A stretch of 42,512 nucleotides of DNA from Bradyrhizobium lablabi (GTDB lineage Bacteria; Pseudomonadota; Alphaproteobacteria; Rhizobiales; Xanthobacteraceae), in assembly GCF_001440475.1 (NCBI RefSeq), contig NZ_LLYB01000047.1, positions 115,720 to 158,231 on the forward strand, written 5' to 3'. A program made the position numbers and the translations under genes. The notes beneath the pieces were generated by a model, which did not search any database, was not told where the DNA came from, and saw only the letters and a list, made by a program, of their open reading frames with translations. This document shows, one piece after another, positions 1-14,186 of this stretch. The stretch's first letter is position 1; every line of letters starts with the position of its first letter.

Positions 1-1461
1 AATGCGGCGCTGTACCGGTGCGTCCTGGACGTGTGCGCGGCAGCCGAACGTCAACTGCTGCTTTACGTCCGGCCTTCCGAGATTCTCGCCCAAGCAAAGT
101 GGCTGAGCGAGCCGCCGACCGCGTCCGAACTGGACGCCATCCTCGACAAACTGACCGAGTGGGGAAATCTCGACTGCCAGGCCGACAACTCGCGCGTCAC
201 CTCGTTGAGCGGGTTCTATCGCCGCCGCATGCTCTACCGGCTTTCGAAGGGCGGCGTCTCCGTCGAAATGGCGCTCAGCGCCTTCGCCAAGGAGATGCAG
301 CGCCGCGGCGAACTGCAGACGGTCGCGCTTGAAGACATCGGCAAGGGCCTCCTCACGCTGATCCACCTCGGCCGAAGCAACGATCCTGACGTCGCCAAGA
401 TCTACGAGACCCTCAATGGTCTGATGACGGTGTTCAACAACATGGCCGAGACCGCGCGGGCCTTCATGGCTGGCGTCCTCCGCGGTGTCGATTTGCAGGA
501 CGGCGACGTGGACGCCGTGTTGAACTACAAGCAGCGTCTCATCGAGTACATCCGCCAATTCGTCGGTGACTTGGTTAGCCGAAGCGGTGCGATTTCGGAA
601 GACATCAATGCCCTTCAATTGCGTATCGACGCGATGCTCCAGTCTGTCGCCCGCCGTCAGGCACGCAACGCACCTCCAGGCGAAGAGCAGGCGGCCTACG
701 AAGCCGAATTGAAGATGTGGGACGAGCGGTGGCAGGGCCTGCGAATGTGGTTCGTCGGCGGGTCGAACGGCGAGCGGTCCCAGAGCGAACAGCTCAGAAG
801 TCGCGCCCGCGCCGCGATCCCGCAACTGCTTGCAGCGATCATCGCGATCAACGAACGCCGAAGCGGCCGCAGCGACCGCTCGGCGGACTTCAAAAGCCTT
901 GCTCACTGGTTCCTCGACTGCGACGGCGACGAAGATGCCCACCGACTTGCACGAGCCGCGTTTGCGCTCAACCCGGCGCGTCACTACGCCGAAAACACCG
1001 CAGCTGCTGACGTTATCGGTGTCATTCCGTGGCATAAGGCGCCGTCCATCGTCGTTCCGCTGCGGCTCCGTGAGACCGGCTACAGCATGCCCCGCGGACG
1101 GCTCCCGCACGTTCATGATCGAAGCGCCGGGCGCAAGAAGCTCGAAGCGCAGGTTGGTGAAGAGCATGCGCAGATCGAGGCAGCCAGACAAAAATTCGCA
1201 ACCGGATGCCCCTTGCTTCTCTCGGAGCTCTGGCGTCTAAACTCGCACGAGTTCCGATTTTTCCTCGATCTCTTGGGCGAAGCCATCGCGACCAAGGCCG
1301 CCGGCGACGATGGCGTCACCGAGATCCAATCCAACGACGGCCTCTATCTCATCCGGCTTGAACCGCTCGACGCGGACACGGAAGCCGAAATCGTCACCGA
1401 AGACGGCCTGTTTTGCGGTCGCGACCACCGCATCACCATCACCCCGACGGATGCCGCATGA
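1..1461 (+). CDS. jetA: Wadjet JetA-type protein (DUF2397, TIGR02677), 5' truncated by window
   Basis: This is the kleisin-like (MukF-like) subunit expected of a Wadjet anti-plasmid SMC complex. The reading frame is open from base 1 and reads NAALYRCVLDVCAAAERQLL, which resembles the conserved N-terminal part of TIGR02677 proteins. The ATG at 31 is therefore internal, and only a few residues (perhaps 10-20) are missing upstream. About 486 residues are visible. The sequence is largely helical, with features such as YVRPSEILA, a FYRRRMLYRLS stretch, and FMAGVLRGVD near residue 155. The last four bases overlap the start of the next gene (ATGA), so translation is probably coupled. The assignment rests mainly on family resemblance plus the strong identity of the three partners behind it. 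In such complexes JetA links the SMC heads. Confidence 0.85.
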   Translation, partial: NAALYRCVLDVCAAAERQLLLYVRPSEILAQAKWLSEPPTASELDAILDKLTEWGNLDCQADNSRVTSLSGFYRRRMLYRLSKGGVSVEMALSAFAKEMQRRGELQTVALEDIGKGLLTLIHLGRSNDPDVAKIYETLNGLMTVFNNMAETARAFMAGVLRGVDLQDGDVDAVLNYKQRLIEYIRQFVGDLVSRSGAISEDINALQLRIDAMLQSVARRQARNAPPGEEQAAYEAELKMWDERWQGLRMWFVGGSNGERSQSEQLRSRARAAIPQLLAAIIAINERRSGRSDRSADFKSLAHWFLDCDGDEDAHRLARAAFALNPARHYAENTAAADVIGVIPWHKAPSIVVPLRLRETGYSMPRGRLPHVHDRSAGRKKLEAQVGEEHAQIEAARQKFATGCPLLLSELWRLNSHEFRFFLDLLGEAIATKAAGDDGVTEIQSNDGLYLIRLEPLDADTEAEIVTEDGLFCGRDHRITITPTDAA

Positions 1462-2765
1462 GCGCCGCCTCGTCCACGCGGAATGAAGCGCCCGCACAGA
1501 CCGGTCGCCCTGGTGGACGCGAGATCCTGCGCCAGCAGGAGACGCAGGAACACGCCGAGCGCAGGGAGGCCGTTCGCGCGCTCCTGATGCGCCCGTTACT
1601 GACGCCCACAACCGCCGAAGCAAGAGAGGCTCTCCGTCTGGTGCGACGTCACTCCGCATACCTCAGGGAGTGGTTCGCCCGCGAGGCGGGATGGCCGCTG
1701 CGCGTGGAGCGCGACTACGCTAGGCTGTGGAAACGCCCGAGCGACACAAGCGATCCTACGCGAGGATGGGCAAGTTTCAACCGCAGGCGCTACGCGATTT
1801 TCTGCCTTGTGTGCGCGGTGCTCGCGCGGAGCGACCCGCAGATCACCCTTTCAGCCCTGGGTGACCAAATCCTGTCCCTTGCAAAGGATACCGATCTCCT
1901 CAGCCGCGGCTTCATTCTCGACATGGCGGACATCCACGACCGACGCAACCTTGCATCGGCCTGCGTCGCGCTCGGCGAACTCGGCGTACTCAATGCCATT
2001 GATGGAGACGCCGAGTCGTTCGTCAAGTCCGGACAGTCGGAAGATCGGTCCCGCGACGTCCTCTACGACGTCAATCGCGGGCCGCTTGCGAGCATTCTTG
2101 CATGCGTGCGGGGGCCATCCACGTGGTCCGAGAACGATGCACCGAAGACAATCATCGATCGGATCTCGGCCATTACGGCAGACATTCAGCCGGAGACCGA
2201 CGAGGGCCGCCGCGATGTCAGCCGGCGCCGCATCTCAAGGCGCCTTCTCGACGATCCCGTTGTGTACGACGACACAGTCGACGAGGCCGACATGCAATAC
2301 TTCATCAATCAGCGCGGCGCGATGGCGAACCGCCTCGCGCTCGGCACCGGCCTCGTCGTCGAACTCCGTTCCGAGGGCCTTGCACTTTGCGATCCGGACG
2401 GCAATTGTAGCGACGTCGCGATGCCGGCGGACGGCACCGATGCCCACGTCACGCTCCTTGTGGCCGACCACTTGGCACATGCCGAAAGCGGCGTTCCCGA
2501 TCGCCTGCAAATCGAAAGGTTCGTGGCTCAGTCGGCCAAGCGGTATGGTCGATATTGGCGGCGCAGCGCCCAGGGCGAAGCCGGCGCGCGGGAGCTGACG
2601 GCGATTGCCATCTACCGTCTCAGTCAACTCAAGCTCATCAGCATCGAAGGCGACAGCATCGAGGTTCTGCCGGCGCTTTCTCGCTACAAACTGGGCGAAC
2701 CGGACATCAAGCATCGCGATGACGACGATCGGCTGCCCGACGTTTCCGAGGAGGCCGACGAATGA
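1458..2765 (+). CDS. jetB: Wadjet JetB-type protein (DUF2398, TIGR02678)
   Basis: Predicted MukE-like subunit of the Wadjet complex, 435 residues. The ATG at 1458 was chosen because it forms an ATGA overlap with the jetA stop; the same frame stays open to 1413, but that would overlap jetA by 49 bases. The N-terminal part carries the DUF2398 hallmark: an acidic/arginine-rich helix, then REWFAREAGWPLRVERDYAR and LWKRP at about residues 72-97. The rest looks like winged-helix modules (for example YRLSQLKLISIEGDSIEVLP near the C-terminus). The tail is strongly acidic (DDDDR...SEEADE). In Wadjet systems this subunit binds the kleisin and helps DNA engagement. Expression is presumably from a promoter upstream of the window. 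Confidence 0.87.
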   Translation: MSAASSTRNEAPAQTGRPGGREILRQQETQEHAERREAVRALLMRPLLTPTTAEAREALRLVRRHSAYLREWFAREAGWPLRVERDYARLWKRPSDTSDPTRGWASFNRRRYAIFCLVCAVLARSDPQITLSALGDQILSLAKDTDLLSRGFILDMADIHDRRNLASACVALGELGVLNAIDGDAESFVKSGQSEDRSRDVLYDVNRGPLASILACVRGPSTWSENDAPKTIIDRISAITADIQPETDEGRRDVSRRRISRRLLDDPVVYDDTVDEADMQYFINQRGAMANRLALGTGLVVELRSEGLALCDPDGNCSDVAMPADGTDAHVTLLVADHLAHAESGVPDRLQIERFVAQSAKRYGRYWRRSAQGEAGARELTAIAIYRLSQLKLISIEGDSIEVLPALSRYKLGEPDIKHRDDDDRLPDVSEEADE

Positions 2766-5700
2766 ACTCCGTTCTTCCTTTCAACCCACAAAGCGCCGGC
2801 CCCGTCCTACCCCTTCCCGGCAAAAAGCGCTGGCAGCCTTTGCGGACCGGCGTCGTGGAGATATTTTTCTATGACGTCGAGGAATTCTGGTTCATCGACG
2901 GACACATCGTGTATCGGGGCAACAACGGCGCCGGCAAGTCCAAACTCTTAGCACTCACGCTACCATTCCTCTTCGATGCAAATCTGAGCCCGTTCCGCGT
3001 CGAGCCGGATGGCGATCGAACCAAGAAGATGGCGTGGAATCTCCTCATGGGGAGGCACAAGCGCCGCGTCGGATATGTCTGGGTCGAGTTCGGGCGCGTC
3101 GACGAGGAAGGCAACAACCAGTTCTCGTGTGGACTGGAAGCGGTCGAAGACCGCGCGAACGTGGAAAGCTGGTTCTTCATCATCGATGGAAGCCGTGTCG
3201 GTCAAGATTGCTCGTTCATCACGCCTGAAAGAGCGGTGCTTCGCCGAACGCAGCTGAAAGATGAGCTCGCTGACAAAGGCGGACACTTCTTTGACCGTGC
3301 CGACGATTATCGCCGTGCCGTGGATCAAAGACTTTTCCAACTCGGAGAGGAACGTTACCGCATCCTGGTCGACACCCTCATTCAGCTTCGCCATCCGCAG
3401 CTTACAAAGACCCCCGACGAGACGCGTCTTTCCAACGCCCTGACTGCCGCCCTACCTCCGGTCGCGGCCGAAATGATCGACACCATTGCGGAAGCCATGA
3501 GCCGCCTTGAAGAGGATCGCAGCCAGCTTAAATCCTATGAATTGGCCCACGCCGCCATCGGAAAATTCGAGCGAACCTACCGCCGCTACGCAGGCGCTCG
3601 GATTCGTACGTTTGCGCGCGAGGTCCGGGCCGCAAGAACCAAGTTCGAAGAGGCAAGCGCGCAGGTAAACAAGGCCGCCGCGCAATTGGCCTCTGCGCTT
3701 CATGAATCGACATCGGCTGAAACCGCCAACATCAATGCGAAACGCGAAGCCGAAGCGGCGGATGCGGCATACAAGGGCATCCTTCAACATCCCGACGGCC
3801 TCAAGGCGGCAGATCTTGCGACCAAACGGATCCTGGCGGAAGAGGCTGAGGGGCGGCTGACTGTATCCGAGAAACGCTCCGCAACGGCGGCTTCAGATCT
3901 GGAGACAGAGTCCGAACGCCAGCAAGCGGCAAGGGCCGACCTTGACCGTGCGATGGAAACCCTTGCCGTCAATCGAAGAAAGGCGCTCGATCTCGCCAGA
4001 TCCGTCGGCATGGTCGCCCAGTTTGAGCATGCGAAGTCGTACTCCGCGTGGCCAAGCGAGCTTGTGCGCGATGGGCAGACCACTCTCCAATCCGAGCGTG
4101 GTAGTCTGCTGACCGCGATCAGGGGCCGCAGAAGCAGCATCGATGCGGTTATCGAGCTGCTTCGCGAAGTCGACAACAAGATTTCAATGCTGGCGAACGC
4201 GGAGCGCGACGAGAATGCGGGCCGTAGCCTCCGTGACGAAGCCGGCAAGACTCTCGCTGCCGCCGAGAATGCGCTGAACGATGAGATCGAAGCTCTCAGC
4301 GCGGCGTGGCGCCGCCATCTTGGGGGCTGCGGACATCTCATGGTAATAGCGACCGAGGACGTCGTGGGTGCCCTCGTCGAATGGGCTCACTCGCTCGAAG
4401 GCGAAAACCCGGCCGCTCGCGAGCTCATCGCCAAGTGTCGACTTGCATACAAGCGGCTCACCGAGGCGCTGGCCGAGCTAAAACATCAGGAGGCTGCGGT
4501 ACGCGCCGAACTGGACGCCGTGGCAAAGCAGATTGCGGATCTGCAGACCGGCTCATTCGAGCGTCCTGCCATCCCACACACACGCAAAGCTGATCGCGAC
4601 GGCCGCCCGGGCCAAGCCTTGTGGCAGGCCGTCGACTTTGTATCGGAGGCCGACGACGACGTTCGGGCCGGCCTCGAAGCCGCACTTGAGGCATCCGGAC
4701 TTCTCGACGCGTGGATTCTCCCCGACGGCCGGATGTTCATTGGCGAGACTGAGCATGACGTGTCACTTGTTTCGAGGCCCTTGGTTACCGGCAGGACCCT
4801 CGCCGACTGGCTTGTTCACTGTGGCGAATCGTCGGTCCAGGATGCCGTCGAGACTTTTCTGTGCGCAGTCTCCTGTACCGACACCGACGACGGCGCCGAG
4901 ATGTGGGTATCACCGGCCGGCCAATTCCGCCTCGGCGCACTCTCGGGCACATGGGAGAAATCCCGCGCCACGTACGTTGGTCATTCGGCTCGAGAGAGAG
5001 CCAGACTGAAAAGGATCGAAGAGCTCGAAGCCACAGCGGCAGGGCTCGGCGAGCAACTTGCCGGTCTCGAAACCGCGATTACGAGCAATGCCGCCACGAC
5101 CGAGGCCATCGAACAGATGGAGAGGACCTGCCCGCCGGACACCAATCTTCGCAAGTCGCACGACACCGTGCGCTCGGCAACCAACGATCTGCACCGGGCA
5201 ACTGAAAACGTCGCAACAAGGGCAAACGATACCGCGGTCGCACGACAAGCTCTGAACGCGTGCAGAAAGTCCGCCGAGCAAGCGGCGCTCGACACCGCTC
5301 TTCCATGCGACAAGCGGGCTCTCGAACAAGCCCGCATCACTTGCGATATCCTCAGCGAGGCCCATCTCGTCGTCGTCGAACATTGCTCGAATTCCATTCG
5401 CGCCGAGCAAAGCCTTCAAGACACCAACGAGCGTGTGGAAACCGCCCGGAGCCGCCATCACGCCGCAACAGAGGACGTCAACGTCGCGGCGATATCGGCG
5501 ACATCCGCGCGCGCCATATACGACGCACTTAAGGAAAGCGTGGGAGCGACTTCCGAACAGTGGGAACGCCGCCTTATTGACGGACAAAAACGTCTCGAGG
5601 ATGCCAAGGCCGACGTAGACAGTACGGACGATCGCCGGCTCTCGGCGGTGGCCGTGCATACCCAAGCCGTCGGTGCACACGAAACCGCGACCCAGGCCCT

Positions 5701-6883
5701 GGCGATGCGCGTAGAGGAACGGCAGCGAGCGGCAAGCAATTTGCAAACGCTCGCAGCAACAGGTCTGATGGCCGCCGGCGCCCCCAACGTACCGTTCCCC
5801 GACACTAGCCGGACATGGACGGTCGACGAGACGCGGGGGCTTGCCGCAGATCTGAATCAAGCGCTCAGCGACATCCGCGACAACGAGTGGGATGGCCTGC
5901 AGTCCAAGATCTACGGCGAATACGTCGATCTCCAGAATGCACTCGCTCAACTAGGATACGTCCCCGACAGTAAGAATGTCGACGGATTCGGTCTAGTGGT
6001 CACTATCGCAGTCCAGAACAAGAGCGGACTGTCACCTGCCGAGGTCCTTGCCCAGGTCGACACCGAGATCACGCAGCGCCGGACCCTTCTCACCGAAAGC
6101 GAGACGAAGATTCTGGAGGATCACCTCCAGTCGGAGATGTCCGTCCAAATCCGCAATCTCATTCAGGACGCCGAACAGTATGTCGAAAGGGTCAACGCAG
6201 AAATCGAGAAACGTCCGACCTCAACGGGCACCTATTTCCGCCTGAGGTGGATCCCGCTTACTGAAGCGCAAGGTGCTCCTGCCGATCTGGAGGACGCCCG
6301 CAAACGGCTCCTCAAGACGAACGCGGATCTTTGGACCGAAAATGACAGGCAAGCCATCGGGGCCATGCTGCAGCGACGCATCGAAGAAGAGCGGCTGAAG
6401 GCCGAAGAGTCTGGCGGCAGCAGTCTCCGCGAGCAGCTTTCCGCCGCCCTCGACTATCGCCAGTGGCACCGCTTCGTCGTCGAGCGCAACGCAATGGGCA
6501 GGTGGATTTCCATTTCTCAGCCTGCCTCCGGCGGCGAACGTGCGTTGGGTCTCACCATTCCCATGTTCGCAGCCGTCGCAAGCTTCTACGGCGACGAGCA
6601 CAGCACCCGGCCGCGCCTTGTCCTGCTGGATGAAGCGTACGCCGGCATCGACGACGGCGTTCGGGCGCACTGCATGGGCCTTATCCACGAGTTCGATCTG
6701 GACTTCGTTATCACGAGCGAACGCGAATGGGCCTGCTACAAGACGCTGCCGGGTGTCGCGATCTGCCAACTCCAGAGACACGACAAGTTCGACGCCATTC
6801 ACGTCTCCCGCTGGCGATGGAACGGAAAGACGCGTTCAAGGATGGAAGAACCGGCGCGGCTGATGTTGAACCGTAGCGCATGA
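2762..6883 (+). CDS. jetC: Wadjet JetC-type SMC ATPase (TIGR02680)
   Basis: SMC-like motor subunit of 1373 residues, a normal length for TIGR02680. The N-terminal half-head carries Walker A, GNNGAGKS, at residues 53-60. Long coiled-coil arms rich in Ala, Glu and Arg follow. They are interrupted by a hinge-like globular segment around residues 610-745 (GQALWQAVDFVSEADDDVRAG to the PAGQFRLGALSG region). The C-terminal half-head has the ABC signature SGGE at 1256-1259 and Walker B LVLLDE at 1286-1291, followed by AYAGIDD. All ATPase motifs are intact, so the protein should be active. The start ATG overlaps the jetB stop, and the stop overlaps the jetD start. In characterised Wadjet complexes this subunit extrudes DNA loops and thereby senses small circular DNA. 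Confidence 0.95.
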   Translation: MNSVLPFNPQSAGPVLPLPGKKRWQPLRTGVVEIFFYDVEEFWFIDGHIVYRGNNGAGKSKLLALTLPFLFDANLSPFRVEPDGDRTKKMAWNLLMGRHKRRVGYVWVEFGRVDEEGNNQFSCGLEAVEDRANVESWFFIIDGSRVGQDCSFITPERAVLRRTQLKDELADKGGHFFDRADDYRRAVDQRLFQLGEERYRILVDTLIQLRHPQLTKTPDETRLSNALTAALPPVAAEMIDTIAEAMSRLEEDRSQLKSYELAHAAIGKFERTYRRYAGARIRTFAREVRAARTKFEEASAQVNKAAAQLASALHESTSAETANINAKREAEAADAAYKGILQHPDGLKAADLATKRILAEEAEGRLTVSEKRSATAASDLETESERQQAARADLDRAMETLAVNRRKALDLARSVGMVAQFEHAKSYSAWPSELVRDGQTTLQSERGSLLTAIRGRRSSIDAVIELLREVDNKISMLANAERDENAGRSLRDEAGKTLAAAENALNDEIEALSAAWRRHLGGCGHLMVIATEDVVGALVEWAHSLEGENPAARELIAKCRLAYKRLTEALAELKHQEAAVRAELDAVAKQIADLQTGSFERPAIPHTRKADRDGRPGQALWQAVDFVSEADDDVRAGLEAALEASGLLDAWILPDGRMFIGETEHDVSLVSRPLVTGRTLADWLVHCGESSVQDAVETFLCAVSCTDTDDGAEMWVSPAGQFRLGALSGTWEKSRATYVGHSARERARLKRIEELEATAAGLGEQLAGLETAITSNAATTEAIEQMERTCPPDTNLRKSHDTVRSATNDLHRATENVATRANDTAVARQALNACRKSAEQAALDTALPCDKRALEQARITCDILSEAHLVVVEHCSNSIRAEQSLQDTNERVETARSRHHAATEDVNVAAISATSARAIYDALKESVGATSEQWERRLIDGQKRLEDAKADVDSTDDRRLSAVAVHTQAVGAHETATQALAMRVEERQRAASNLQTLAATGLMAAGAPNVPFPDTSRTWTVDETRGLAADLNQALSDIRDNEWDGLQSKIYGEYVDLQNALAQLGYVPDSKNVDGFGLVVTIAVQNKSGLSPAEVLAQVDTEITQRRTLLTESETKILEDHLQSEMSVQIRNLIQDAEQYVERVNAEIEKRPTSTGTYFRLRWIPLTEAQGAPADLEDARKRLLKTNADLWTENDRQAIGAMLQRRIEEERLKAEESGGSSLREQLSAALDYRQWHRFVVERNAMGRWISISQPASGGERALGLTIPMFAAVASFYGDEHSTRPRLVLLDEAYAGIDDGVRAHCMGLIHEFDLDFVITSEREWACYKTLPGVAICQLQRHDKFDAIHVSRWRWNGKTRSRMEEPARLMLNRSA

Positions 6884-8112
6884 CGTCGGCCATAGACGAA
6901 CGCCTGGTCCGGCTCCTCGGCGGCGCCGAGCTTTCCGATCTGCGCGCGCGGCTGCGCAGGCGCTACGAGCTCGGACCGGCCGACGGCAAGCTCCCATCGA
7001 TCCAGGTGGGCAAGCTGAATGAAGCGGAACGCGCCGCACTCGCGTCCCTAGTCGGCCGCAAAGGCGGCGTGGCGGCTTCAATCTCCATCGACGTCAGCGC
7101 AGTCGACCGAGCGCTCTCCGATGCCGGTATCGCACCGTCCCTTCGAACTGCGCTCGAACTTCTTGACGGTCCGATCATCCATCGCGAAACTGAATTGAAT
7201 AGGATTCGCGACAATTGGGCGGCCGTTCTGGCCGGCTGCTCGCACGTCGATCTGATCGCCTATTTGGCCTCGCCGCTCAACTTTGGTGTCCTGAAGCGCT
7301 TATCAGGCAATCAACCGGATTCCGCGTCCCTTATCTGCAGACAAACCGAAGACATCCTCAGACGGCTTCCCGCTGCGGGAGTACCGCGCGCTCAAATCGC
7401 GGCGGAGCATCTCGGAGACGCTCACGGATTGGACAGCGCCCGCCCGGTCGCCACTCTCACGCTCGCCGTCCTTCGAAGCCGCTCATCGACCGACACAGGC
7501 GATGACCGCGATACATGGGCCGCGGTCGGCATCCTGGTGAACGAACTCGCCAGGCCTGCCCTGTTCTTGAATGTGCCGTGCAGCGGATTGCCAGTCTCGC
7601 CCGGAGAACCACAATACGCATCACTGCGGCTTCTCGCTCGGCGGCCGCCGGAATGGACGGTGGCGAGCAAATCCATTTTGGTGTGCGAGAATCCGAATCT
7701 CGTCGGGATCCTCGCCGACCAACTCGGGACCGCCTGCCCTCCGGTCGTTTGCGTCGACGGCCATCTCGGTGCGGCTCAGCGGACCATTCTCAAACAGCTC
7801 AAGGAATCGGGGGCAGACCTGCGATATCATGGCGACTACGATTGGCCAGGAATTACGATCGCCAACTACGTGATTGCGAAATACGGCGCCGTACCGTGGC
7901 ATTTCTCCGCGGTAGATTACGTCGCCGCCGCAAAAAGTGCTCCTCAGCTCAGAATACCGCTCAGCGGAAGGCCTGCCATTGCTTCATGGGATGCAGACCT
8001 TACCGCGGCCATGATAAAGACCGGAATCAAGATCGAGGAAGAGGCCATCGCCGAGCGGATCATCGACCTTTTAGGCGAAGAGTGGCTACGCTGGAATAAG
8101 CGAGCTTACTAA
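6880..8112 (+). CDS. jetD: Wadjet JetD-type nuclease, Toprim fold (DUF3323 + DUF2399, TIGR02679)
   Basis: Predicted DNA-cleaving subunit, 410 residues. The N-terminal part (LRARLRRRYELG, then EAERAALASLVGR) fits DUF3323. The GDAHGLDSARPVATLTLAVL stretch at about 179-198 is typical of TIGR02679. The C-terminal DUF2399 part is a topoisomerase VI/Spo11-like Toprim domain with metal-binding Glu270 in SILVCENP and Asp319 and Asp321 in YHGDYDWPG. All acidic residues needed for cleavage are present, so the nuclease looks intact. Its start overlaps the jetC stop by four bases, which closes a strictly coupled four-gene operon. By analogy with studied Wadjet systems, JetD cuts closed-circular plasmid DNA after JetABC has extruded it. 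An 80-base gap separates it from the convergent integrase. Confidence 0.93.
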   Translation: MTSAIDERLVRLLGGAELSDLRARLRRRYELGPADGKLPSIQVGKLNEAERAALASLVGRKGGVAASISIDVSAVDRALSDAGIAPSLRTALELLDGPIIHRETELNRIRDNWAAVLAGCSHVDLIAYLASPLNFGVLKRLSGNQPDSASLICRQTEDILRRLPAAGVPRAQIAAEHLGDAHGLDSARPVATLTLAVLRSRSSTDTGDDRDTWAAVGILVNELARPALFLNVPCSGLPVSPGEPQYASLRLLARRPPEWTVASKSILVCENPNLVGILADQLGTACPPVVCVDGHLGAAQRTILKQLKESGADLRYHGDYDWPGITIANYVIAKYGAVPWHFSAVDYVAAAKSAPQLRIPLSGRPAIASWDADLTAAMIKTGIKIEEEAIAERIIDLLGEEWLRWNKRAY

Positions 8113-8192: not shown

Positions 8193-9692
8193 CTACGCTC
8201 GCACGTCGAGATGCGGGATCTTTCTAAGCTCTCGCAGCATCGCATCTGGAGGAAACTCACCGTAGGTATCCGCCACTGTCTTTCGGCCGTGCCCGGTCAT
8301 CGCGTCGAGGATATCAACTGCTAACCCGTTTCGCCGACCCAGCGTTTTAATGCGATGACGCCAAGAATGATTTGGGGCGAGCCGTTTGTCGACGACACCG
8401 AGTGTTTTGATCCATCGTCCCAATATTTTGGTCCCATTACCTCCGCGACGACCAAAACGATCCTCTGAAAGATCTGGAAATAGCGGTCCTTTGCCTGCGG
8501 AAGCCGCAAACTTCAGAAACCCTTCATCGATCAACGCCGGATGGACGGGAACAACCCGTTCGGAGTTCAAGTTCTTCAAAGAGCCGGCTTCGGCGGCGAA
8601 GGCGATACACCATATACCGTCGATCTTCTTTATGTCCTCGGACCGCAACTGGCAGATTTCCGCGATGCGTGCGCCCGTATAGGCAGATACCCAAGGCACC
8701 CAACGTTTGTGGGACTCGGTTTCGGCGCGAGCCGCTCGAAGGATAACCTTGGCCTCTTCATCCGTGTATCCCCGCCTCCTCTCCGAAGGCCTATTCTTCA
8801 AATCGATGCTGATGCGAGCCGCAGGATTAATATCGAGTTTGCGGTTATCGACAGCCCATTGAAATATCGCCCGCACGGGCGCCAGCTTACTGTCACGGAT
8901 AGTCTTGGCGGCACGTTGCTTGGCAAGAAGTTCTTCCTTCCATCGCACAAGGTCATCTGCGGTAACTCTCCGCGCGTCGTTATGGTCAAGGAACTCGGAC
9001 AACTCATTCATCACCCGGCGCCACGAGTAGGTTGTCTTCTCATTTGGTTGCTTCTCTCGAAGCCAGCCCTCAATCATCTTTTCGAAAGTTAGAGGCTCGG
9101 CCGCGGCCCGAGGCTGCAATAGCCCCAAACTACCTCGCACCTCTTGCTTGCCGCGCAAAAAGGCTTGGTGATTTTGGACGACCCGTTGCACCTCAAAGGT
9201 AACTGCGCGGGCCAACCTTTCGCGATCTTGGGCGGGCGGAGACAAGCCCCTTTCTTCAAAATGCCGGTCGACTAGCCAGTAACAGACGCTCTGTTGATCA
9301 AGCCGCTTTTGAACGGCTGGGGGCAGCGGCTGATTGACATCCACGTAAAGTTCGCCCTTGTGGGCACTCCAAAGGCTTGCGCCGATCTCAATATCCCACT
9401 GCAGCTGCGCGTAGGGATCTGCCTGAACCTGGCGCCAAAGATGCTCACCAATCGCGGCCGAGTGTTGCGCAATATCGTCGGAGGACAACGGGCGCTGACC
9501 CGAACGCATATTTGACCAGCGTTCTTCGATTTCGGCCAACTTCAGCGCGTGCAGCCGCTTCGCATCGGTCGGGTCTCGAGTGCCCAGACTGAAGCGCTCC
9601 TCGCGCTTCCCGATCAGGTTGCGAAGATCATCCGGAACACGTTTCCGGAACCAGTAATAGCCGCTGTCGGGATGCTTCCAGGGTCGCGTCAT
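8193..9692 (-). CDS. Tyrosine-type site-specific integrase of the tRNA-Ser island
   Basis: Phage/island integrase of 499 residues. The N-terminus (YYWFRKRVPDDLR, residues 12-24) matches the DUF6538-type domain of many proteobacterial island integrases. A SAM-like core-binding domain spans about 200-290 and the catalytic domain about 305-490. Visible catalytic residues are Arg342 (TGARIAEI), His442-x-x-Arg445 (NHSWRH), His468 (TGHG) and nucleophile Tyr477 (ADTYGEF), with a probable Lys373. The ATG at 9692 was chosen because the family begins here. The frame stays open to 9866, but that extension runs through the tRNA gene and is not credible as protein. The gene starts about 100 bases beyond the 3' end of tRNA-Ser, on the same strand, as expected for an element that uses that tRNA as attachment site. 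Confidence 0.93.
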   Translation of the reverse strand: MTRPWKHPDSGYYWFRKRVPDDLRNLIGKREERFSLGTRDPTDAKRLHALKLAEIEERWSNMRSGQRPLSSDDIAQHSAAIGEHLWRQVQADPYAQLQWDIEIGASLWSAHKGELYVDVNQPLPPAVQKRLDQQSVCYWLVDRHFEERGLSPPAQDRERLARAVTFEVQRVVQNHQAFLRGKQEVRGSLGLLQPRAAAEPLTFEKMIEGWLREKQPNEKTTYSWRRVMNELSEFLDHNDARRVTADDLVRWKEELLAKQRAAKTIRDSKLAPVRAIFQWAVDNRKLDINPAARISIDLKNRPSERRRGYTDEEAKVILRAARAETESHKRWVPWVSAYTGARIAEICQLRSEDIKKIDGIWCIAFAAEAGSLKNLNSERVVPVHPALIDEGFLKFAASAGKGPLFPDLSEDRFGRRGGNGTKILGRWIKTLGVVDKRLAPNHSWRHRIKTLGRRNGLAVDILDAMTGHGRKTVADTYGEFPPDAMLRELRKIPHLDVRA

Positions 9693-9725: not shown

Positions 9726-9790
9726 ATCCGGGCGGCAAAAGCCTATGACAATCAATGACCTGTTGATTTTACTGGGTTTCTCTTGTGCCC

Positions 9791-9880
9791 TGGCGGAGAG
9801 GGAGGGATTCGAACCCCCGATAGGCTTGCACCTATGCCGCATTTCGAGTGCGGTGCATTCAACCACTCTGCCACCTCTCC
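9791..9880 (-). tRNA. tRNA-Ser (anticodon CGA), probable integration site
   Basis: A 90-base class II tRNA with encoded CCA. On the minus strand the acceptor arm GGAGAGG (9880 side) pairs with CCTCTCC, followed by discriminator G and CCA at 9791. The anticodon stem CCGCA/TGCGG encloses the loop CTCGAAA, which gives anticodon CGA and reads UCG serine codons. There is a long variable arm (ATAGGTGCAAGCCTAT) and a T arm GGGGG-TTCGAAT-CCCTC. The integrase gene lies about 100 bases past the 3' end, so the island most likely recombined into the 3' half of this gene and restored it. Confidence 0.97.
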
Positions 9881-12636: not shown

Positions 12637-13233
12637 ATGTTGCAGGACATCCCGATCCAAACCTCGTCCTTGCGTCAGGCGAGTAGCTGCGTCCTCGAGA
12701 CCGAACGGCTGACGTTGCGCCGGCCGACGCTCGCGGACGTAAAAGCGATTGCGCATCTCGCCAATGATCGCCGCATTGCGGAAAACACCCGCCGCCTGCC
12801 GCATCCCTATTTGCAGGATCATGCGGTCGAGTTCGTGCGCGCCAAGGCTGCCGACAATAACGAGACGGTGTTTCTGATCGAACAGAACTATTCGCCGATC
12901 GGCATGGTTGGCATCGATCGCAGCGAGCCGGACGCGCCGGAGCTCGGCTATTGGCTGGGGGTCGCGCATTGGGGCCAGGGTTTCGGCACCGAAGCCGCGC
13001 GCGCGATGATCGATTTCTTCTTCGAGGAGTTTGACGACGAGCACCTGATTTCCGGCGCCCGCGTCGCCAACCCGGCGTCGCGCAACATTCTGGAGAAATG
13101 CGGCTTCCAGTGGAGCGGCGTCGAACTGCACCGCTTCGAGGCGCTGGGATCCTCAACCCCGGTCGACCGCTTTCGCCTGACGCGCGGCGTGTGGACGTCG
13201 CTGAAGAACTGGGGAAGCTCGACGAGAAGGTAG
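12637..13233 (+). CDS. GNAT-family N-acetyltransferase (RimJ/RimL-like)
   Basis: A 198-residue acetyltransferase of the GNAT fold. The N-terminal part has LETERLTLRRPTLADVKAI, the typical RimJ/RimL-type entry. The acetyl-CoA pyrophosphate-binding region is WLGVAHWGQGFGTEAARAMI at about 107-126. The C-terminal hallmark NPASRNILEKCGF follows at about 146-158. The acceptor substrate is unknown; members acetylate protein N-termini, antibiotics or small molecules. The ATG at 12637 follows AGGAG with good spacing. It lies just after the rplU-rpmA terminator, so it probably has its own promoter. Confidence 0.9.
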   Translation: MLQDIPIQTSSLRQASSCVLETERLTLRRPTLADVKAIAHLANDRRIAENTRRLPHPYLQDHAVEFVRAKAADNNETVFLIEQNYSPIGMVGIDRSEPDAPELGYWLGVAHWGQGFGTEAARAMIDFFFEEFDDEHLISGARVANPASRNILEKCGFQWSGVELHRFEALGSSTPVDRFRLTRGVWTSLKNWGSSTRR

Positions 13234-13238
13234 TTCGC

Positions 13239-13261
13239 ACCCTCCCCCTCCAGGGGAGGGT
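13239..13261. repeat. 23-base palindromic repeat, copy 1
   Basis: A G/C-rich partial palindrome (centre CCCTCCAGGGG). It is identical over 23 bases to 38978-39000, at the right end of the larger element at 38841-39000. It sits in the 38-base gap between the convergent acetyltransferase and EamA genes, where a hairpin could act as a bidirectional transcript end. Confidence 0.8.
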
Positions 13262-13271
13262 AAGAAAGAGA

Positions 13272-14186
13272 TCACGCCGGCGGATTGACCACCGCTTCCT
13301 CGCGACCCAACTTCTGCTCGCGCAAGAAGATGTAGAACCCCGCGCCGATGATGATCGCCGCGCCGATCAGGGTCGAGACCGACGGCACGTCGCCCCACAC
13401 CACGAAGCCGAAAATCACCGCCCACACGATCATCGAATATTGATACGGCACCACGACGCTGGCCGGCGCCAGCTTCAGCGAACGGTTGATGCACAAGAGC
13501 GCAAAGACGGAAATCACGCCCGCCGCGGCAAACAGGCCGAGACTGCCGAGCGTCGGCGTCACCCAACCGATCGGCGACATCAGCGCGCCGAGCAGAAAGG
13601 TGCCGCCGAACTGCGACGTCGTCAGCACGATATCCGGCGTGTCGCGCAGCGAGCGCGTGATCAGCATCAGGAACGCAAACGACAGGCTGCCGCCGAGCGC
13701 GATCATCGCCGGCCAGCTTACCGTCTGTGTGGAGGGGCGCAGCGCGATCAGTACGCCGCAGAACCCGATCAGGATCGCGGTCCAGCGCCGCCAGCCGACG
13801 CGCTCGCCGAGCACGATGCCTGACAATGCCGTGACAAAGATCGGCGAAGCCAGATAGTAAGTGATGACGTCGGCGAGCGGCAGATAGACGGTGGCGAGAA
13901 AGAAGGCCGCGACCTCGAGCGTCGAAAGCGTCACGCGCAGCAACTGCAGCCACGGCCGTTCGATGCGCTTGAATTCGGCGCGCTGCTTCCAGATCACCGG
14001 CAACAGCACAAGCAGCGCCGCGCAGGCGCGCAGCCATAACAACTGGCCGACCGAATAGGTCGCGACCATGAATTTTCCGAGCGCGTCGCCGAACGAGAAC
14101 ATGAAGATTGACAGCAGCATCAAGCCGATGCCGGCCAGTCGCGCCGAACGCTCGTCATAGGTGGAGATTTTGGCGAACAGGCTCAT
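13272..14186 (-). CDS. EamA/DMT-family inner-membrane transporter
   Basis: A 304-residue drug/metabolite-type exporter with about ten predicted membrane helices in two EamA repeats, for example LAGIGLMLLSIFMFSFGDAL near the start and VVPYQYSMIVWAVIFGFVVW in the second repeat. The start MSLFAKISTYDERSARLAG at 14186 fits family length. The frame continues upstream to 14522, but that stretch is not membrane-like and would overlap the divergent MaoC gene. The C-terminus is short and cytoplasmic (FLREQKLGREEAVVNPPA). The substrate cannot be deduced. Confidence 0.93.
   Translation of the reverse strand: MSLFAKISTYDERSARLAGIGLMLLSIFMFSFGDALGKFMVATYSVGQLLWLRACAALLVLLPVIWKQRAEFKRIERPWLQLLRVTLSTLEVAAFFLATVYLPLADVITYYLASPIFVTALSGIVLGERVGWRRWTAILIGFCGVLIALRPSTQTVSWPAMIALGGSLSFAFLMLITRSLRDTPDIVLTTSQFGGTFLLGALMSPIGWVTPTLGSLGLFAAAGVISVFALLCINRSLKLAPASVVVPYQYSMIVWAVIFGFVVWGDVPSVSTLIGAAIIIGAGFYIFLREQKLGREEAVVNPPA

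What the first reader, a model, noticed from the sequence alone, without database searches (positions are those of the whole stretch)
1..8112. Complete-looking Wadjet plasmid-defence operon with every junction translationally coupled
Seen: four plus-strand genes joined by three ATGA overlaps (1458, 2762, 6880), with intact Walker A, signature and Walker B in the SMC subunit and intact Glu/Asp/Asp in the Toprim nuclease. Known: the DUF2397, DUF2398, TIGR02680 and DUF2399 families make up one Wadjet type (III, as I recall). Inferred: the system is active against plasmids. It is a known class, but this variety is less studied than the MukBEF-like types.
Basis: partly seen in the sequence, partly recalled or inferred. 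Interest (0 to 1): 0.7.

Follow-up and report, generated by a model that had tools for sequence, protein, structure and literature searches.

The report
Type II Wadjet on a tRNA island
A Bradyrhizobium soil bacterium carries, beside a tRNA gene where foreign DNA likely inserts, four tightly joined genes of the known type II Wadjet family, predicted to reel in small circular plasmids and cut them; it is an ordinary member of its family whose gene block has likely moved as a unit between strains.

Summary
In detail: plus-strand jetA (its 3' part), jetB, jetC and jetD, joined by ATGA overlaps at 1458, 2762 and 6880, matching Wadjet profiles almost end to end. Two corrections: the type is II, not III (PADLOC JetA2/B2/C2/D2), and jetA's first ~20 codons lie left of the window, across two single-N characters. 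ATP-site motifs and the Toprim Glu/Asp/Asp are intact, the predicted JetD fold matches known Wadjet-type nucleases, and dN/dS is 0.04-0.21. ATGA coupling at all three junctions recurs in 20 of 23 other four-gene Bradyrhizobium operons, so it is a family trait. The operon lies in a ~93-kb (as assembled) integrase/tRNA-Ser island with Gabija, a Mokosh-like gene and an AddAB-like helicase-nuclease pair. Its 8.5-kb cassette is 92-94% identical in five other Bradyrhizobium genomes whose chromosomal flanks are 77-86% identical, pointing to horizontal exchange. One cassette edge meets, within 6 bp, a truncated gene of the AddAB-like module; the other falls in jetD's last codons. Activity against plasmids is inferred, not shown. 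Known kind, ordinary member.

The parts
1..1461 (+). jetA (kleisin-like subunit, DUF2397/TIGR02677), 3' part; gene begins about 61 bases left of the window
   Evidence: PDB JetA 9qe0_E E=7.3e-22
1458..2765 (+). jetB (DUF2398/TIGR02678), ATGA overlap with jetA
   Evidence: PDB JetB 9qe0_D E=1.8e-4
2762..6883 (+). jetC (SMC-like ATPase, TIGR02680), ATGA overlap with jetB; Walker A, signature and Walker B intact
   Evidence: PDB JetC 9qe0_A E=8.4e-77
6880..8112 (+). jetD (DUF3323+DUF2399 Toprim nuclease), ATGA overlap with jetC; E270/D319/D321 intact; last residues (WNKRAY) not found in the 120 listed relatives
   Evidence: predicted fold matches 8b7f, 7til, 8uru, 1d3y
1..8089 (+). Wadjet cassette shared at 92-94% DNA identity with L006-L010; left edge outside the window at C47:115298 (window about -421)
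8193..9692 (-). tyrosine recombinase (integrase; DUF6538 and SAM-like domains over cut-off, Phage_integrase E=7.1e-5 just under its cut-off) beside the tRNA; start placed at ATG 9692 by reading, stop at 8193
9791..9880 (-). tRNA-Ser(CGA), integration target
9790..9809 (.). right attachment-site repeat: 20-bp perfect direct repeat of C47:32136-32155, at the tRNA 3' end

Best explanation
This is a type II Wadjet operon, jetABCD, whose products are predicted to act as an SMC motor that reels in circular DNA until a small plasmid is fully extruded and the JetD nuclease cuts it. JetA, JetB and JetC would form the loop-extruding, ATP-driven motor. JetD, a Toprim nuclease of the Spo11/topo VI-A kind, would be the cutter, and the chromosome with its integrated island would be spared because extrusion on it is never completed. 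The three 4-base start/stop overlaps would couple translation of the subunits; this arrangement is conserved in the genus. The operon sits as a self-contained ~8.5-kb cassette in a defence block of an integrase/tRNA-Ser island and has most likely been exchanged horizontally between Bradyrhizobium strains as a unit. Shown here: gene content, type, motifs, fold match, selection, island repeat and cassette edges. Inferred: DNA extrusion, cleavage, plasmid restriction and transfer.
For: Profile matches and type. Solved homologues named JetA, JetB, JetC. JetD: invariant Glu/Asp/Asp in 50 of 50; AF2 model, mean pLDDT 90.5, pTM 0.57; best Foldseek hits 8b7f 'Nuclease from C. glutamicum' (8.9e-7), 7til JetD of P. 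aeruginosa (6.4e-6), 8uru Spo11, 1d3y topo VI-A. Purifying selection, dN/dS 0.04-0.21 in 12 gene-by-relative comparisons. Coupling conserved in 20 of 23 operons. Island: integrase next to tRNA-Ser, similarity to relatives stops at the tRNA 3' end, 20-bp direct repeat. Horizontal exchange: cassette 91.8-93.9% against 77-83% in the same genomes for matches of at least 477 bases within the first ~4.65 kb of a 7.5-kb chromosomal query, one of them 86%. Type II cleaves naked circular DNA in vitro: PMC12647877, passages. JetC relatives on plasmids: 21 of 23 records are at least 148,985 bases, consistent with a size escape (not compared with the size distribution of the collection). No relative in phage records.
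Against: No functional test. The jetA 5' end is unreadable in this assembly (two N). The JetD tail was altered where the cassette was joined, and its effect is unknown. No JetD of type II was found by sequence among solved structures, and the TM-scores of the fold match are low (0.33-0.44 for the four hits with E up to 0.001), as different relative domain positions would give. Native plasmids that it would meet are unknown; the one replication-protein family searched, PF03428, gave no match in the own genome. The core and cassette stretches compared for horizontal exchange were not matched for coding constraint.
Confidence: 0.88

Rival explanations
1. The operon is a decayed or non-functional copy: recombination at the island altered the JetD tail and broke the 5' end of jetA, so nothing is restricted.
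For: The JetD tail motif WNKR is in none of the 120 listed relatives; cassette homology stops 23 bases before the end of jetD; two N in the first codons of jetA.
Against: Single N, often in pairs 53 bases apart, recur along this contig, so they look like scaffold joins, not mutations; the open frames of 1373 and 410 aa are intact; dN/dS against relatives is 0.04-0.21; the catalytic residues are intact; the last few residues of JetD vary among relatives.
Confidence: 0.07
2. It is a chromosome-organising MukBEF/MksBEF-like condensin with a nuclease, not an anti-plasmid system.
For: SMC/kleisin architecture is shared; the PADLOC authors warn of Muk look-alikes (PMC9252829, passages).
Against: All four Jet genes including the nuclease are present and each best match is a Jet model; patchy presence, 25 of 265 genomes of the genus, and location in a defence block are not what a housekeeping condensin shows.
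Confidence: 0.03
3. The neighbouring AddAB-like helicase-nuclease pair is a functional partner that finishes off plasmids linearised by Wadjet.
For: It lies divergently, about 0.7 kb from jetA; it is distinct from the housekeeping AddA on contig C123; an AddB-like sequence lies near the operon in 3 of 24 genomes with all four jet genes (own, G010, G092), although only 6 genomes of the genus hold both.
Against: The arrangement differs in all three and the G010 and G092 copies are broken; the adjacency in our genome is a sharp recombination junction at a truncated gene; 85%-identical pairs in G067, G115 and G258 have no jet gene in the 20-kb stretches read.
Confidence: 0.05

Closest known systems
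Type II Wadjet of Neobacillus vireti (nvJET; structure entries 9qe0/9qe1 presumably)
   Same: Same family; JetA, JetB and JetC match 9qe0 chains by sequence; the middle part of JetC, residues 570-806, also aligns.
   Different: Low sequence similarity (JetB E only 1.8e-4); JetD not matched by sequence; Bradyrhizobium island setting. That 9qe0 is the N. vireti complex is inferred from the molecule names and a title in a reference list.
Type I Wadjet JetD of P. aeruginosa (7til) and the C. glutamicum nuclease 8b7f (MksG, name recalled)
   Same: Same predicted nuclease fold; shared architecture of the systems (recalled).
   Different: Sequence families differ: only weak cross-hits of JetC to JetC1 models (2.2e-10 and 2.8e-4) and none to type-1 models for JetA, JetB or JetD.
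Bradyrhizobium cassettes L006-L010 (B. mercantei, B. macuxiense BR 10355 and BR 10303, Bradyrhizobium sp. Ec3.3, a MAG)
   Same: 8.5 kb at 92-94% DNA identity, same ATGA overlaps.
   Different: Different surroundings: IetAS next to jetA (L006, L007, L009, L010; profiles run on L006 only), with a methionine-synthase gene and an AhpC-like gene further out in L006, or other genes and recombinase-like frames (by reading) in L008.

Membership tests
Wadjet type II | JetA DUF2397, JetB DUF2398, JetC TIGR02680, JetD DUF2399 all present | tested here: met
Wadjet type II | Gene order A-B-C-D on one strand in one operon | tested here: met
   the same in 23 of 23 other four-gene loci of the genus
Wadjet type II | Functional-looking SMC ATPase (Walker A, signature, Walker B) | tested here: met
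Wadjet type II | Toprim nuclease JetD with acidic triad and Spo11/topo VI-A-like fold | tested here: met
   (TM-scores low)
Wadjet type II | Complete jetA 5' end | tested here: inconclusive
   two N in the first ~20 codons
Wadjet type II | Restricts small circular plasmids; cuts circular, not linear DNA | not testable with these tools
   needs transformation or in vitro assay
Wadjet type II | SMC hinge without an open central channel, as reported for nvJET | not tested
   only a sequence alignment over JetC 570-806; reported for nvJET in PMC12647877 (passages)
Wadjet type III | Best matches to type-3 Jet models | tested here: not met
   no type-3 model listed for any of the four proteins at E up to 0.001; that the library holds such models is recalled
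Integrase/tRNA genomic island | Tyrosine recombinase beside a tRNA and a direct repeat of the tRNA 3' end | tested here: met
   the island extent rests on scaffold joins and a second copy of its left-end sequence exists at C47:51342-51445

The most novel reading that the evidence does not exclude
The Wadjet cassette landed beside an extra AddAB-like helicase-nuclease pair and the two now form one plasmid-destroying line: Wadjet measures and linearises the circle, and the island's own AddAB-like enzyme degrades the ends.
Probability: 0.06. Interest if true: 0.6.

Novelty: new member of a known kind. Interest (0 to 1): 0.22.

Why it matters
It fixes the type (II) and gives a set of type II operons in one genus (24 of 265 genomes with all four genes, own included) with conserved subunit coupling. 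These are useful for choosing a second type II complex to study, since a 2023 review says most work was on type I. It also gives a clean case of an anti-plasmid cassette that was likely exchanged between islands, with edges located to within a few bases, one of them in the last codons of the nuclease gene. If active, it would hamper plasmid-based genetics in the host strain.

Tried and rejected
Type III: rejected. Muk/Mks housekeeping condensin: rejected on gene content and patchy distribution. Carriage by a phage: no relative in 50,697 phage records. Carriage on close plasmids: the 23 plasmid records with a JetC relative are all under 60% identical and none covers 80% of the query in one place; one of them is 11.9 Mb long and is hardly a plasmid. 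AddAB-like pair as an obligate partner: not supported, see rivals. A third gene X (384-430 aa) of that module: no Pfam match, and found in only 3 of the 19 AddB-like loci examined, each with 1.5 kb of flank, so not an obligate part. Empty-site search: no empty site was found; the flanks beyond the tRNA differ among relatives, apart from stretches of 86-428 bases shared within two groups (L013/L014/L031 and L015/L018/L023/L039), and a few relatives' flanks match C47 between 10.7 and 22.6 kb (L013, L014, L016, L018). Repeats marking a transposon at the cassette edges: only one 14-nt imperfect palindrome (L002:16427-16446) and three short direct repeats in the two stretches scanned, none pairing the two edges. 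Promoter-like sites upstream of jetA: 2 found, 0.5 expected in shuffles, not used. Sequence search of solved structures for JetD: nothing usable.

Papers: PMC10586767, PMC12287153, PMC12647877, PMC9252829 and PMC12904381 were seen as passages only; the N. vireti structure paper and the Deep 2022 paper are not held. Searches for Bradyrhizobium with Wadjet (1 paper, about another organism by its title) and TIGR02680 with Wadjet (0 papers) found no report on these operons in that library. The catalytic-motif names (Walker, signature, Toprim), the AddAB/RecBCD roles, the name MksG and the tLST resemblance are recalled.

Full report
What is there. The window is bases 115,720-158,231 of contig C47 of an 8.8-Mb genome. 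The named close relatives of its JetC are Bradyrhizobium (5 of 6 loci; the sixth is a 39%-identical Panacagrimonas MAG), and handles of its own genus match those records by coordinates (for example G111 and L006). Four plus-strand genes fill 1-8112. jetB (1458-2765), jetC (2762-6883) and jetD (6880-8112) are intact; jetA runs off the left edge. About 61 bases further left lies the ATG that relatives use, but two single N characters (C47:115666, 115719) lie within the first ~20 codons, so the assembly cannot be read through there; five close relatives have an intact N-terminus at that place. Single N, often in pairs 53 bases apart, recur along this contig and look like scaffold joins.

Identity and type. 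PADLOC gives JetA2 1.8e-176, JetB2 4e-130, JetC2 E=0 and JetD2 2.3e-124, and lists no type-3 model. Pfam and NCBIfam agree. JetA, JetB and JetC match chains of 9qe0/9qe1 named JetA, JetB and JetC, JetB only weakly (1.8e-4). A type II complex of Neobacillus vireti has been published (title in the reference list of PMC12647877); that 9qe0 is that complex is my inference.

Integrity. JetC has Walker A, signature and Walker B; JetD has E270, D319 and D321, invariant in 50 of 50 sequences. The AF2 model of JetD (mean pLDDT 90.5, pTM 0.57) matches the C. glutamicum nuclease 8b7f (8.9e-7), JetD 7til (6.4e-6), Spo11 and topo VI-A; the TM-scores are low (0.33-0.44). Against three relatives (L006, L008, L009, of the five close loci), dN/dS is 0.04-0.07 (jetA), 0.13-0.19 (jetB), 0.14-0.19 (jetC) and 0.15-0.21 (jetD): all four genes are under purifying selection.

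Distribution and coupling. JetD is found in 25 of 265 genomes of the genus, own included. I looked at the surroundings of all 24 others (five as L006-L010, nineteen fetched): 23 have all four genes and 1 (G241) only a jetD remnant; in one of the 23 (G148) jetC is split between two frames. In-frame ATGA overlaps at all three junctions occur in 20 of these 23; the exceptions are L099, L101 (G148) and L102, and the jetC/jetD overlap is in 23 of 23. Several of the 23 are near-identical to each other. A search of 295 relatives with TIGR02680 finds 14 over the family cut-off, own included and all in the genus; 52 more match only weakly, below it, as related ATPases would.

Island. A tyrosine recombinase (8193 to about 9692, minus strand) lies next to tRNA-Ser(CGA) (9791-9880). 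The tRNA was found in 25 of 29 relative loci; one of these (L026) begins inside it, and in the other 24 the similarity to C47 stops at the tRNA 3' end, or within 3 bases of it, on the integrase side. The DNA beyond the tRNA differs among these relatives apart from short shared stretches in two groups, so the tRNA looks like an insertion hotspot. A 20-bp perfect direct repeat of the tRNA end (window 9790-9809) lies at C47:32136-32155 (BLAST E 9e-5), which gives an island of about 93.4 kb as assembled. A weaker, 17-base match lies at C47:22662, and a 104-bp copy of the island's left-end sequence at C47:51342-51445 (94%), so the island may be composite. Its right part holds a Mokosh-like MkoA gene, Gabija gajA/gajB, an AddB-like/AddA-like pair and then Wadjet. 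Other parts carry a Cpn60, an FtsH, a trypsin-PDZ protease and carbohydrate genes. Left of the window I scanned 26 ORFs, 24 of them inside the island: 7 with Pfam and PADLOC, 9 with Pfam only, 9 with PADLOC only and 1 with both; many further ORFs were not scanned.

Cassette edges. C47:115298-123808 (window about -421 to 8089) is 91.8-93.9% identical in L006-L010; no other match at E up to 1e-10 was found between these loci and C47:39000-158231. In four of the five, IetAS lies beside jetA, as also in G243; in L006 a methionine-synthase gene and an AhpC-like gene lie further out. L008 has another setting. A 7.5-kb chromosomal stretch of our genome matches those genomes only within its first ~4.65 kb, at 77-83% for the matches of at least 477 bases, one 477-base match reaching 86%. 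So the cassette is younger in common ancestry than the core: horizontal exchange. Coding constraint was not matched between the two stretches. The left edge meets an AddAB-like module whose similarity to G067, G115 and G258 (83-85%) ends at C47:115292, 6 bases away. There the upstream gene X (384-430 aa in those genomes) is reduced to its last ~97 residues. The right edge falls in the last codons of jetD, whose tail motif WNKR is in none of the 120 listed relatives.

Mechanism. By family, JetABC would extrude loops and JetD cut when a circle is fully extruded (PMC10586767, passages). A type II complex cuts naked circular DNA and was bypass-incompetent at tethered obstacles, its hinge lacking an open channel (PMC12647877, passages). 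Plasmids with a JetC relative are mostly large: 21 of 23 records are at least 148,985 bases, and the two smaller ones (66,408 and 72,694) are weak matches. This fits a size escape, but I did not compare with the size distribution of the collection. For this operon every step of action is inferred.

AddAB-like neighbour. It is a second copy, distinct from the housekeeping AddA on C123 (TIGR02784 1385 bits against 200 for the island copy), and AddB-like proteins occur in 66 of 265 genomes. Within the stretches read, an AddB-like sequence lies near the operon in 3 of 24 genomes with all four jet genes (own, G010, G092), each in a different arrangement and broken in two of them; in the other three genomes that hold both (G083, G179, G180) it lies elsewhere. 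This is more than random placement would be expected to give, but is what defence-island clustering gives. I therefore rate a functional link as unlikely.

Verdict. A real, intact-looking type II Wadjet operon in a mobile setting; known kind, ordinary member; the type is corrected and the 5' end is outside the window.

Noticed in passing
L002:10039-15926 (C47:109038-114925), L113:10790-17913: AddB-like (870 aa) and UvrD/PDDEXK AddA-like (1093 aa) overlapping pair on the island; AddB-like in 66 of 265 genus genomes, no PADLOC model for the AddB-like protein. In three genomes a gene X of 384-430 aa without Pfam match precedes it; ours keeps only its end. Possibly an unlisted defence module.
   Followed up: partly
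L002:6862-10026: Gabija gajA/gajB next to the AddAB-like pair, a similar neighbourhood in G258 (L115). The gajB ORF lacks its first ~60 residues just after a pair of single N characters, so probably an assembly effect.
   Followed up: partly
C47:57634-71727 (L004, L005): Cpn60, FtsH/M41 and trypsin-PDZ genes on the same island, resembling a transmissible stress-tolerance locus (resemblance recalled).
   Followed up: no
window 9791-9880 and L013-L041: tRNA-Ser(CGA) looks like an insertion hotspot in the genus: DNA beyond the tRNA 3' end differs among most relatives examined (24 flanks), and in many the tRNA and the ROK-family gene are further apart than here.
   Followed up: partly
window 13239-13270: GC-rich short repeat that recurs many times in other Bradyrhizobium genomes, often as inverted pairs about 145 bases apart; no inverted partner within 13050-13450. 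REP- or MITE-like.
   Followed up: no
C47, single N or N pairs 53 bases apart: Regular pattern of single N characters with 52 bases between them, at or near the 5' ends of several genes (jetA, gajB, the MkoA-like gene); looks like a scaffolding artefact and will disturb gene calls in this assembly.
   Followed up: partly
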